From Polaribacter sp. Z022 (lineage in GTDB: Bacteria > Bacteroidota > Bacteroidia > Flavobacteriales > Flavobacteriaceae), in the NCBI RefSeq assembly GCF_023555495.1, contig NZ_JALCZO010000004.1, positions 124,001-188,000 on the forward strand: 64,000 nucleotides of DNA, written 5' to 3'. The notes under the pieces were generated by a model. That model did no database searches. It saw only the letters and a list, made by a program, of their open reading frames with translations, and was not told where the DNA came from. This document shows positions 46,557 through 52,089 of this stretch, piece by piece (position 1 is the first letter of the stretch; each line of letters opens with the position of its first letter). The position numbers and the translations under genes were made by a program.

Positions 46557-48068
46557 ATGAAAAATTTATCTACATTCTTAGTTTGTTTATTTTTTTCTTG
46601 TTTATTATTTTCTCAAGAAGAATTTGGTACAGGTTTAAAATTTGATGAAAACTTATATAATGAAATTCCACAATCTGTTCCTATAATTACAAGAAGTTTT
46701 ACTTCAATGCCATCTTCTTATAGTTTAAAAGGGTATGCTCCTACTCCTGGAAACCAAGGTAGACAAGGTTCTTGTGTTGGTTGGGCAAGTGCATATGGAG
46801 CAAGAACCATTGCAAATGCAATAAAAAATGGTTGGAAATACAATACATCTAAAATAAATCAGAATACATTTTCTCCTGCTTATGTATACAATCAAATAAG
46901 ATATAATGCAAAATGCGAAGGTGCTTATATAGAAAATGCTATGAAGGTTATGAATAGTAATGGTGCTGCTAAATTAACAGATTTTCCATACGATTATAGA
47001 ACTTGTTTAAAAACACCTTCTAATTATGTAAACAGTAGAGCAAAAGATCATAAAATTTTAAATTTTGAAAGACTTGCAAAATGGAACAACCCATATAATT
47101 TAGTGAGCAAAGTTAAAAAAGCAATCTCTCAAAAAAACCCTGTTGTTATTGGTTTATTCCGTTTTTCTAGTTTAAAAACAGATATGAACAATGTGTGGAT
47201 ACCTAGTACAGGTAAATCTGGTCATGCAATGGTTGTTGTTGGTTATGATAATTATAAAGCTGGTGGTTCTTTTGAGGTTATGAACTCTTGGGGAACACGT
47301 TTTGGTAAAAATGGTTTTTTCTGGATTAGGTATGAAGACTTTAAAAAACAAGTAAAAACAGCTTATGTTTTAGTAGATAAAAGCAGTAATAACAACGATT
47401 CAAATAATAATAATAATAATAATAATAATAATAATAATAATAATAATAATAATAATAATAATAATAATAATAATAATAATTACAACAACACTACTACAGT
47501 TAGTAAATTAGGTGGAGAACTAACTTTAAAATTAAGTAATGGTAAAAATATGCCTATTGTTTTAGCAGATGGTGCAACAAGAAATTTTAATATCGTAAAA
47601 GCAACTAAAACTACTTATAAAGTTAATAATACCTACACTTCTGGTACACAGTTTAGAATTTACTTAAAAAGCAAACAAAGAGGTTATGTTTATTTAATTG
47701 GGTATGGATCTGGAGACAAATCTGTAAATAAATTATACCCTTTTGAAAATTTTAGTGACTATTTTAATTACACAAATAGTGAAATTGCATTACCAAGTGA
47801 AGATTATTTTATAGAGTTTGATAACAAACCTGGTAGAGATATTCTTTGTGTATTATATAGTAAAGAAAAATTAAATATAAATGATATTGTTAGTAAAGCT
47901 AAATACGGTTCTGGAGATTTTGTCTCTAGAGTAAAAAAAGCATTAAGTACTAAAATGTTTAAAGGAACAGATGTTTCTTTTAGCCAAAACAAAGTATCAT
48001 TTAATGCAACTTCTAAAAGTTCTTCTGCTAAAGTTGTCCCTATTTTTATAGAAATGAATCACCAATAA
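46557..48068 (+). CDS. Exported papain-family (C1A) protease with poly-Asn linker and DUF4384-like domain
   Basis: A 503-residue exported protein. Signal peptide 1-20; papain-like core with active-site Cys73 (NQGRQGSCVGWASA), His223 (GHAMVVVGYD) and Asn243 (VMNSWGTRFGKNGF); then a linker with 26 Asn in a row (residues 283-308), and a C-terminal domain like DUF4384 (FRIYLKSKQRGYVYLIGYGS, KLYPFENF). Start ATG at 46557 gives a good signal peptide; the longer upstream frame runs through a terminator and is rejected. It starts 7 bases before the caspase gene, so the two proteases form one operon and probably work together outside the cytoplasm. Confidence 0.9.
   Translation: MKNLSTFLVCLFFSCLLFSQEEFGTGLKFDENLYNEIPQSVPIITRSFTSMPSSYSLKGYAPTPGNQGRQGSCVGWASAYGARTIANAIKNGWKYNTSKINQNTFSPAYVYNQIRYNAKCEGAYIENAMKVMNSNGAAKLTDFPYDYRTCLKTPSNYVNSRAKDHKILNFERLAKWNNPYNLVSKVKKAISQKNPVVIGLFRFSSLKTDMNNVWIPSTGKSGHAMVVVGYDNYKAGGSFEVMNSWGTRFGKNGFFWIRYEDFKKQVKTAYVLVDKSSNNNDSNNNNNNNNNNNNNNNNNNNNNNNNNNYNNTTTVSKLGGELTLKLSNGKNMPIVLADGATRNFNIVKATKTTYKVNNTYTSGTQFRIYLKSKQRGYVYLIGYGSGDKSVNKLYPFENFSDYFNYTNSEIALPSEDYFIEFDNKPGRDILCVLYSKEKLNINDIVSKAKYGSGDFVSRVKKALSTKMFKGTDVSFSQNKVSFNATSKSSSAKVVPIFIEMNHQ
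47403..47480 (+). repeat. AAT trinucleotide repeat, 26 copies
   Basis: An uninterrupted run of 26 AAT codons in the protease gene. Slipped-strand changes would only add or remove Asn residues, since the unit is three bases. Confidence 0.95.
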
Positions 48069-48075
48069 CAAAATT

Positions 48076-51000: not shown

Positions 51001-52089
51001 GTAGATTATTTAGATATTAAATACCAATCTTCTAACTTTAACAATCCACCTGTTGTTGTAATTACTTCTCCTAATGTAGAAGCTAAAAGAGGTTTTAAAA
51101 TTGTAAAAACTAAAAGAATTCAAGTTAAAGGAAAAGCAACAGATTCTGATGGTATATACGAAATAACAGTAAATGGTATAGAAGCAAACGTTGCAGAAGA
51201 TGGTACTTTTATTGCAAACGTACCTTTAAAATATGGTAAAAACGATTTAATAGTAAAAGCTACAGATTTAAAACAAGCTTCTTCTACTAAAACATTTGTT
51301 ATTAAAAGAAACTCTCCAATTATAGACAATACTATAATTACAGATAATAAAATAGACAAACTAGATATTGGTTTTGGTAAATACCATGCTTTAATTATTG
51401 GTGTTAGTGAGTACAAAGACGAAAGTATTGTAGATTTAAATGGAGAACCAACTAAAGATGCAGATGCTTTAGCTAGTTTATTAATTTCTAAATACAATTT
51501 TAGCCAACAAAATGTTACTGTTTTAAAAAATCCTACAGAAAATCAAATTATAAAACAGTTATACACACTAAGAAAAAACGTTGGTAAAAATGACAATTTA
51601 GTAATTTTCTATGCTGGTCATGGTAACTATGATGAAGCAAGTGAAAAAGGTTATTGGATGCCTGCTGATGCAGAAATGGAATTTGAAGGAAATGTAATTT
51701 TAAACACAAGTATTGTTTCTTACATAAAATCTATTAACTCTAAACATACTTTATTAATTGCAGATGCTTGTTTTAGTGGTAGTATTTTATCTACAAACAG
51801 AAATTATAGCAAAGCTTCAAATGCTGTAAAAACTAAATATTCTTTACCAAGTAGAAGAGCAATTACAAGTGGTACATTAACAACAGTACCTAATAAAAGT
51901 GTATTTATGAAGTACTTGTTAAAAAGATTAAGAGAAAATACCAAAACATATTTATCTGCTGGTCAATTATTTAACATGATAGAAGATCCTGTAATTAATA
52001 ATACTTCTGGAGATAACAAACCTCAATATGCACCAATTAGTAGAACTGGTGATGAAGGTGGAGATTTTATATTTATAAAAAATAATTAA
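48076..52089 (+). CDS. Exported caspase-like (C14) protease with five LamG-like repeats
   Basis: A 1337-residue exported protein. Signal peptide 1-21; five repeats of about 190 residues (starts near 27, 218, 416, 612, 805), each with DNFDxNxNxW-like start, GWxTxxxxxFD..KDFxIE, GFGLIFGR.D.xN and KVxKxGxxLxYYIN, a jelly-roll or LamG-like fold, joined by Asn-rich linkers; an Ig-like domain (about 990-1085); and a C-terminal caspase domain (about 1099-1330) with His1182 (YAGHG) and Cys1232 (DACFSG). No T9SS tail. The repeats may bind glycans or a surface. Exported caspase/papain pairing is unusual. Confidence 0.9.
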   Translation: MKTLKSILFLFLFITTSLFSQNSDQYVYQENFDNKGTWPTGSNDNRSLSVFNGRYYFEHKRSKESWKVSTSTFNLDTSKDFDMDISIQKISGVDNYGISFLYDYKDSNNYKEFAYTANGYFRVAKNESSTYTNIKEWTKSDKIKKGNYSVNQLTVSKRGSTVTFYINNSNVYSTSFKRFVGKQMALNLYRNQKVSIDFIKVKQINNNTNNNTFTSNKTILFEGFNNNNNNWPTKEDGDVSLEIRNGDYIFDHKRASGGWSSTLVNKINTSRNFKISAQIKKLAGIQNNGFGLIFGREDSNNQNMFFISGNGSYVIKHIKDGTQSFTKDWTESSHIKTGDGAVNYLKVEKDGSKLKYYINSNLVYTSYSYEFYGDRTGFIVYGKQKISIGYLSMAYTDSKSNNNNNNSNNKDKTTKTILYDSFYSNKNGWAIADEDLTKLEIKNSKYYFQYTGNKGWTTTKGFDFDATRDFKVEASIQKISGIKNNGFGIVFGRQDGDNQHQFLINALGSYSIDKYENGKLNTLVEWTKSSAIKKENYSTNLLKMEKRGSKFYYYINNSLVYTGSYMKVYGKRYGFSIFDPQKIAVDHIYISYLDNGPNNNNIFNNNTKFKGDLVFSDDFNVGNTNEWATQNDEKIHFRFKNGKYHIQHKRKEKGWSTYISKKFDSSKDFEIETKIDKISGVTNNSYGLTWGLDDNNSFRFFIASTGYYKISRTVNNKEEIIVKWTKSSNINQNNGASNILKVRRDGEYYKYYINNRYITKTDFEPFYGDKIGYVVYSDQEIAIDYLKIYKVKSNNNTNIVTNKKLTLPVYDNFDGNKNGWNLEDSDDYSVAIANSKLLLHKKKEGGIFISRDVTINTEKDFIIETALSRVTKSTDGLYGITFGRKNSSNEYSFLFSGNGSYIYRKFDNDVYKKIIPFTESSAIKTGIGESNKVKIVKSGNLLRFYINDQYVNETPFEGFFGSKFGYSIYYDKKIAVDYLDIKYQSSNFNNPPVVVITSPNVEAKRGFKIVKTKRIQVKGKATDSDGIYEITVNGIEANVAEDGTFIANVPLKYGKNDLIVKATDLKQASSTKTFVIKRNSPIIDNTIITDNKIDKLDIGFGKYHALIIGVSEYKDESIVDLNGEPTKDADALASLLISKYNFSQQNVTVLKNPTENQIIKQLYTLRKNVGKNDNLVIFYAGHGNYDEASEKGYWMPADAEMEFEGNVILNTSIVSYIKSINSKHTLLIADACFSGSILSTNRNYSKASNAVKTKYSLPSRRAITSGTLTTVPNKSVFMKYLLKRLRENTKTYLSAGQLFNMIEDPVINNTSGDNKPQYAPISRTGDEGGDFIFIKNN

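What the first reader, a model, noticed from the sequence alone, without database searches (positions are those of the whole stretch)
46557..52089. Operon of two exported cysteine proteases of different clans, papain-like and caspase-like
A papain-family enzyme (Cys73/His223/Asn243) is followed 7 bases later by a caspase-family enzyme (His1182/Cys1232) with five LamG-like repeats. Both have signal peptides. Bacterial caspase-like proteins linked to defence act in the cytosol; an exported pair suggests processing of envelope proteins or attack on outside targets, with possible activation of one by the other.
Basis: partly seen in the sequence, partly recalled or inferred. Interest (0 to 1): 0.62.

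Follow-up and report, generated by a model that had tools for sequence, protein, structure and literature searches.

The report
Exported paracaspase paired with papain protease
Two neighbouring genes encode two exported protein-cutting enzymes, one related to caspases and one to papain, and the same pairing recurs in several bacterial phyla with a short shared sequence that looks like a cutting or docking site, which suggests that one enzyme may switch on the other outside the cytoplasm.

Summary
The pair is not peculiar to one genome: of 78 named public loci in which both domains of the papain-like protein were found, 57 have a same-strand caspase gene within 1.3 kb, upstream or downstream, in five phyla by record title. 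The papain-like protein ends in DUF4384. The caspase core is closest in sequence to MALT1 paracaspase and keeps two acids that suggest an arginine pocket. The caspases' other domains vary (LamG-like, WD40, TPR, MORN, Sel1, OmpA).

New: a motif R-[G/N/D/S]-hydrophobic stands before most caspase cores. About half of the paired papains have a similar motif; in the window it is a loop that AlphaFold leaves disordered. Own-pair copies resemble each other between groups (3-5 of 720 permutations reach the observed value) but not significantly within groups. MALT1 cuts R|G.

Best reading: an exported initiator paracaspase that processes itself and an effector papain-like protease. Pairing is well supported; cleavage is inferred, not shown.

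The parts
46480..46507 (+). terminator-like hairpin between the upstream DUF3857/transglutaminase-like gene and the pair
   Evidence: 1 found where shuffles give 0.9, so weak on its own
46557..48068 (+). exported papain-like protease with C-terminal DUF4384 (503 aa)
46557..46613 (+). signal peptide of the papain-like protein; mature N-terminus would be Gln20
   Evidence: sequence; Gln20 invariant in 18 aligned sequences; Bacteroidetes Q-rule, PMC10653852 passages
46752..47339 (+). Peptidase_C1 catalytic domain; Cys73 46773-46775, His223 47223-47225, Asn243 47283-47285
   Evidence: closest fold xylellain, Z 27.9
47403..47480 (+). AAT x 26, poly-Asn linker, disordered in the model
47580..47597 (+). 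R342-N-F-N-I-V347: proposed cleavage or docking motif; exactly these six residues have pLDDT < 50 between ordered strands
47631..47867 (+). DUF4384 domain as delimited by Pfam
48076..52089 (+). exported MALT1-like caspase (1337 aa)
48076..48135 (+). signal peptide of the caspase; mature N-terminus would be Gln21
   Evidence: sequence
48142..48675 (+). LamG-like repeat 1
48724..49269 (+). LamG-like repeat 2
49306..49869 (+). LamG-like repeat 3
49897..50466 (+). LamG-like repeat 4
50491..51030 (+). LamG-like repeat 5 (concanavalin-like fold in the model)
51043..51315 (+). Ig-like domain (Glucodextran_B; Pfam stretch residues 1008-1079, start extended by eye)
51088..51105 (+). R1005-G-F-K-I-V1010: R-motif of the caspase, between two Ig strands; mean pLDDT 68 for the block of ten that holds it (neighbours 74 and 90)
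51385..51981 (+). caspase domain; Asp1128 and Asp1230 (putative S1 acids), dyad His1182 (51619-51621) and Cys1232 (51769-51771)
51793..51822 (+). disordered loop after the catalytic Cys (residues 1240-1249)
   Evidence: pLDDT < 50

Best explanation
The two genes form a conserved exported protease module. The caspase is an arginine-specific, MALT1-like paracaspase with an exchangeable binding module; here five concanavalin-like repeats plausibly bind a glycan at the envelope. On a signal that is not known it becomes active, cuts after the Arg of its own Ig-domain motif (R1005|G) and after the corresponding Arg in the flexible loop of the papain-like partner (R342|N). This processes the papain-like protease, which acts as the effector in the periplasm or at the surface. 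Shown by sequence or model: the genes, export signals, intact catalytic residues, recurrent pairing, the conserved acids, the matching motifs, the disorder of the papain loop. Inferred: cleavage, direction of activation, ligand, effector role.
For: Pairing: 57 of 78 named loci have a same-strand caspase within 1.3 kb (39 downstream, 18 upstream); caspase genes are 53 of 146 immediate neighbours against 5 of 612 genes three or more places away. Window's family: caspase adjacent in 10 of the 18 loci examined. Evenly drawn genomes of the phylum: a caspase gene nearby in 9 of 10 fetched loci with papains judged exported by eye, 0 of 5 with papains judged not exported. Partner cores co-diverge (Mantel r = 0.78, 57 pairs, 0 of 2000 permutations). 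Export: N-terminal hydrophobic segment in 65 of 65 papains and 61 of 62 caspases with a complete N-terminus. Arginine pocket: Asp1128 in 65 of 67 and Asp1230 in 67 of 67 cores, aligned with Asp residues of MALT1. Motif: R[GND]-hydrophobic in the pre-core region of 56 of 60 caspases (45 of them RG; shuffled mean 18.6, maximum 26). Own-pair similarity: one pair for each of six groups, 3 to 5 of 720 permutations reach the observed value, whichever member stands for the two large groups; residue after R identical in 13 of 15 pairs against 5.8 by shuffling. Loop 342-347 disordered between ordered strands. MALT1 consensus LX(P/S)R|G (PMC4659944, passages). Canu: a MALT1-like Ig-caspase that activates a partner enzyme with disordered insertions (PMC12799240, section 8).
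Against: No cleavage was observed. About half of the paired papains lack the motif (33 of 66 match the pattern, two of them at another place), so it cannot be the general activation site. The conserved positions lie after the Arg, whereas the quoted MALT1 consensus lies mostly before it. Inside the two large groups own pairs are not better than swapped pairs (24 of 120 and 120 of 720 permutations; an earlier grouping gave p = 0.065). The motif was defined after looking at the sequences. The type A motif pattern is not enriched in its genomes (6, 9 and 11 hits against 6, 10 and 15 for the reversed pattern). Two papains with the motif have no caspase in the stretch fetched (L280, and L281 at a contig edge). 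Low pLDDT may only reflect poor coverage of an insertion that a minority of rows has.
Confidence: 0.45

Rival explanations
1. The shared motif is a docking strand, not a cut site: both proteins present the same short linear motif to one binding groove (on the caspase or on a third protein), which holds them in one complex.
For: The conserved residues run downstream of the Arg with alternating hydrophobics, as in a beta strand; type B caspases carry the motif twice in the Ig region.
Against: A conserved Arg beside an enzyme with a putative arginine pocket and a disordered loop are at least as well explained by cutting.
Confidence: 0.25
2. The order is reversed: the papain-like protease is upstream and activates the caspase by cutting its Ig region or the disordered loop after Cys1232.
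For: The papain-like gene comes first in type A and type B loci; the caspase model has disordered stretches on both sides of the core's first part.
Against: The caspase, not the papain, carries the variable modules expected of a sensor, and the caspase gene comes first in 18 of 57 named pairs.
Confidence: 0.12
3. Two independent exported proteases of protein breakdown that share regulation only; the motif resemblance is a convergence of similar strands.
For: Type C loci keep the papain-like gene without a caspase (8 loci); 21 of 78 named loci lack a same-strand neighbour within 1.3 kb, although six of these lie at or near a contig end, one has the caspase in fragments, one has it on the other strand and one has it 3.5 kb away.
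Against: Pairing in five phyla with changing gene order and accessory domains; co-divergence of the cores; matching motif variants between groups.
Confidence: 0.15

Closest known systems
MALT1 paracaspase (human)
   Same: Best solved relative of the catalytic core by sequence (hmmsearch E = 1.4e-19); fold match Z 21.5, 201 residues, 2.7 A, tied with plant metacaspase 4 at Z 22.4; an Ig-like neighbour; His/Cys dyad; Asp residues at matching positions.
   Different: Exported; the Ig-like domain recognised here lies before the core; LamG-like repeats; no death domain matched in Pfam.
Prokaryotic caspase homologues (orthocaspases, bacterial metacaspases)
   Same: Caspase domain with His/Cys; diverse accessory domains; DUF4384 is reported as an accessory domain of cyanobacterial orthocaspases (PMC8283722, passages) and in some alphaproteobacterial relatives (PMC6426788, passages).
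   Different: Here DUF4384 is on the partner papain. The passages I saw of PMC3501461 mention proteolysis domains in 23 metacaspase operons but no papain partner.
Canu (caspase-nuclease) antiphage system
   Same: MALT1-like caspase with an Ig-like fold next to a partner enzyme with disordered insertions proposed as caspase sites (PMC12799240, section 8).
   Different: The partner is a papain-like protease, not a nuclease; both proteins are predicted exported; the Ig-like domain precedes the core.
Xylellain and other papain-like (C1A) proteases
   Same: Catalytic fold and residues; xylellain is the closest structure (Z 27.9, 234 residues, 2.2 A).
   Different: Carries a C-terminal DUF4384 domain and is paired with a caspase.

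Membership tests
paracaspase (MALT1-like) | caspase fold with His/Cys dyad | tested here: met
   67 of 67 aligned cores; fold match
paracaspase (MALT1-like) | acidic S1 pocket for P1 arginine | tested here: met
   Asp1128 65 of 67, Asp1230 67 of 67, aligned to MALT1 Asp residues; that these form the MALT1 S1 pocket is recalled
paracaspase (MALT1-like) | N-terminal death domain as in animal MALT1 (recalled) | tested here: not met
   no such Pfam match at E <= 0.1; hence 'MALT1-like', not MALT1
paracaspase (MALT1-like) | cleavage after arginine | not testable with these tools
   needs an enzyme assay
Canu system | Ig-containing caspase next to a partner pro-enzyme | tested here: inconclusive
   Ig domain and adjacency are there; that the partner is a pro-enzyme is not shown
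Canu system | partner is the gated nuclease | tested here: not met
   partner is Peptidase_C1 + DUF4384; not filed as Canu
C1A papain family | Gln/Cys/His/Asn catalytic residues | tested here: met
   Q67, C73, H223, N243 invariant in 68
C1A papain family | I29-type inhibitor propeptide | tested here: not met
   no such Pfam match at E <= 0.1 and only about 65 residues, signal peptide included, before the Pfam stretch; bacterial members often lack it (recalled)
type IX secretion substrates | C-terminal T9SS sorting domain | tested here: not met
   no NCBIfam match of that kind at E <= 0.1 in either protein
anti-phage defence system | match to a named defence family | tested here: inconclusive
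   only the generic PADLOC 'caspase' model, 4.3e-14, part of the profile; no match for the papain-like protein

The most novel reading that the evidence does not exclude
A widespread bacterial initiator-executioner protease cascade outside the cytoplasm: an exported MALT1-like paracaspase with interchangeable sensor domains switches on an exported papain-like executioner by cutting an R|G/N site that it also carries in its own Ig domain, and the two copies of the site co-evolve. The conserved residues after the Arg may be a neo-N-terminus that binds a pocket once exposed, as in trypsinogen-type activation.
Probability: 0.35. Interest if true: 0.85.

Novelty: new variant of a known kind. Interest (0 to 1): 0.68.

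Why it matters
Bacterial caspases are mostly discussed as cytosolic death or defence enzymes with few known substrates. A recurrent exported pair of caspase and papain-like protease, with a specific candidate site on the partner, gives a directly testable substrate for a large group of uncharacterised enzymes and would extend caspase-type activation cascades to the bacterial envelope.

Tried and rejected
Chance adjacency: rejected (53 of 146 immediate neighbours against 5 of 612 distant genes). Degenerate caspase: rejected. Mobile or defence-island setting: among 18 type A loci listed (L045 and L099 are one record) an exonuclease-like gene stays just upstream in 16 and the channel gene follows within five genes in 13, which speaks for a stable chromosomal place; the window's helicase-DarT cluster 4 kb downstream was not looked for in relatives.

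Motif tests that were weak or failed: a 10-mer comparison of whole interdomain segments was confounded by poly-Asn (19 representatives, p = 0.002; 7 clades chosen, 63 of 5040 permutations). A first motif-only test with 6 clades gave 7 to 12 of 720. One search used 15 pairs, all with the motif in both partners: one for type A, one for the Flavobacterial type B, the rest from other loci; pairs with it in the caspase only were dropped, among them L278 and L279. Its set of seven representatives (p = 0.0008) holds two members of one group, and its groups were set by eye; after a tree (quick method, several weak forks) I repeated it with one member per group (3 to 5 of 720) and within groups (not significant). 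The strict pattern missed motifs such as RGLKVT in the caspases of L274, L275 and L117, which a wider pattern shows. In the labels and the 33 of 66, L128 and L146 match at other places and are not true cases. Genome scan with the type B motif: 3 hits in each of 7 genomes, 20 of 21 at the pair; as the pattern was written from these sequences, only the near-absence elsewhere counts (reversed pattern: 2 hits in 7 genomes). The same for type A was uninformative.

Limits: L045/L099 are one record and L105/L277 another (equal contig lengths). Bin titles may misname organisms. Export was judged by hydrophobicity and by eye. DUF4384 was not folded or searched alone. Literature on the pairing: searches in the held open-access library listed no paper that I could recognise as describing it; listings and passages only, most papers unread, no preprints or subscription papers.
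Full report
What is there. The papain-like gene most likely runs 46557-48068 and the caspase gene 48076-52089, 7 bases apart on one strand, with a hairpin that looks like a terminator just upstream. Additions: a C-terminal DUF4384 domain and a poly-Asn linker in the papain-like protein, an Ig-like domain in front of the caspase core, and five repeats 25-41% identical in pairs. Both proteins have a signal peptide followed by Gln, the pattern of the Bacteroidetes Q-rule (PMC10653852, passages). Neither matches a T9SS sorting domain in NCBIfam. Each appears once in the window's genome at E <= 0.001.

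Structure. AlphaFold models from alignments of 35 and 68 sequences have mean pLDDT 84.8 and 89.6; pTM is 0.47 for the caspase fragment, so its domain arrangement is uncertain. The caspase core matches plant metacaspase 4 (Z 22.4) and MALT1 (Z 21.5), a tie; by sequence MALT1 is the best solved relative (E = 1.4e-19). The last repeat matches concanavalin-like domains, among them CBM66 and, at like scores, other lectin-type domains; this says fold, not function. The papain domain matches xylellain best (Z 27.9).

Conservation in the window's family. Of 397 genomes, 35 match the papain-like protein at 1e-10 and 13 match the caspase core. I fetched 17 of the papain loci, chosen from the better matches. 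With the window they fall into three kinds: type A, papain plus LamG-Ig-caspase (3); type B, papain plus WD40-Ig-caspase (7); type C, no caspase (8). In one type C locus Pfam names an M48-Sel1 protein and a CHASE2 protein nearby (L051); similar genes in the others were judged by eye, and not all have the M48-Sel1 gene.

Conservation beyond. In 78 both domains of the papain-like protein were found. Of these 57 have a same-strand caspase within 1.3 kb, 48 within 150 bases, 39 downstream and 18 upstream. Among the other 21, six lie at or near a contig end, L094 has the caspase gene in fragments, L114 has it on the other strand and L157 has it 3.5 kb away. With the earlier 17 loci the tally is 66 of 95. 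By record titles the paired loci lie in Bacteroidota, Chlorobiota, Ignavibacteriota, Pseudomonadota and Verrucomicrobiota. An evenly drawn sample of the phylum gave matches at 1e-30 in 23 of 395 genomes, 28 matches in all. I fetched 17 stretches with 18 of them; three others (G000, G131, G340) were known already. Fifteen stretches held two-domain papains. Where the papain was judged exported by its N-terminus, a caspase gene was nearby in 9 of 10, in some with one or two genes between; where judged not exported, in 0 of 5. A further 17 loci, chosen by coverage of the profile from the matches, had a caspase in the stretch in 12. Pfam independently names Peptidase_C14 in 32 of 36 partner caspases and finds WD40-type propellers, TPR, MORN, Sel1 and OmpA among their other domains. 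Partner cores diverge together (r = 0.78), as expected of genes inherited as a unit.

The caspase as an arginine protease. The dyad is intact in 67 of 67 cores, and the two acids that align with Asp residues of MALT1 are kept in 65 and 67 of 67. Orthocaspases are described as cutting after positively charged residues (PMC6426788, start of abstract).

The shared motif. In front of the caspase core, 56 of 60 testable caspases carry R followed by G, N or D and a hydrophobic residue; shuffled segments give 18.6 on average and 26 at most (six of the 66 pairs, with the core near the N-terminus or truncated, were left out). In about half of the paired papains a similar motif stands just before the Pfam-defined DUF4384 (33 of 66 by pattern, two of them misplaced). 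In the window it is R342-N-F-N-I-V347, exactly the stretch that the model leaves disordered between ordered strands; in the caspase it is R1005-G-F-K-I-V1010. In type B both partners have R-N-L-x-V-[ED]-D-D; in a group with Mucilaginibacter both have R-G-L; one pair has R-G-L-E-I-V in both, another R-D-F-E-I, another R-S-I. With one pair for each of six groups of the papain tree, 3 to 5 of 720 permutations reach the observed own-pair similarity; inside the two large groups own pairs are not better than swapped ones. Over 15 pairs the residue after R is identical in 13, against 5.8 by shuffling. None of the 8 type C papains, which have no caspase next door, has the R-motif: 7 have Gln at the corresponding place and L059 has Arg-Gln. 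The motif was found by looking, so these figures describe and do not confirm.

Mechanism. MALT1 cuts after Arg, with the consensus LX(P/S)R|G (PMC4659944, passages). In Canu a MALT1-like Ig-caspase activates a partner whose disordered insertions carry the proposed sites (PMC12799240, section 8). The simplest reading is that this caspase cuts its own Ig region and the papain loop at the same kind of site. Docking without cutting remains possible, as does the reverse order. Where papains lack the motif, another site or no cutting must apply.

Verdict. Ordinary in its parts, unusual in its combination and its recurrence. The searches listed under Tried and rejected showed me no description of the pairing. 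I rate it a new variant of a known kind.

Noticed in passing
window 56001-59737: UvrD-like helicase, DarT (PF14487) and an ADP-ribosylglycohydrolase (PF03747) in a row: possibly a DarT-like toxin with a hydrolase of another family in the place of the usual macrodomain antitoxin (the usual partner is recalled).
   Followed up: partly
L051-L054, L056-L059: Type C loci: papain-DUF4384 without caspase; in L051 an M48-Sel1 protein and a CHASE2 membrane protein stand nearby by Pfam, similar genes in the others by eye.
   Followed up: partly
L194, L195, L197: Membrane genes that resemble the CHASE2 genes of type C stand together with papain-DUF4384 and a caspase, which may link the two arrangements (the CHASE2 label here is by eye, not scanned).
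   Followed up: no
L200, L203-L206, and many hits: A papain-DUF4384 paralogue that seems to lack a signal peptide; 84 of 244 genomes of one family match the profile at 1e-60, mostly this paralogue as judged from profile coverage; no caspase in the five stretches read.
   Followed up: partly
window 52192-53022: Ion channel gene (PF00520) directly behind the pair in 11 of 18 type A loci listed, and a distant channel three genes from the papain in two type C loci, L052 and L058.
   Followed up: partly
L282, L275, L193, L150, L160: Loci with two or three caspase genes in tandem behind one papain.
   Followed up: no
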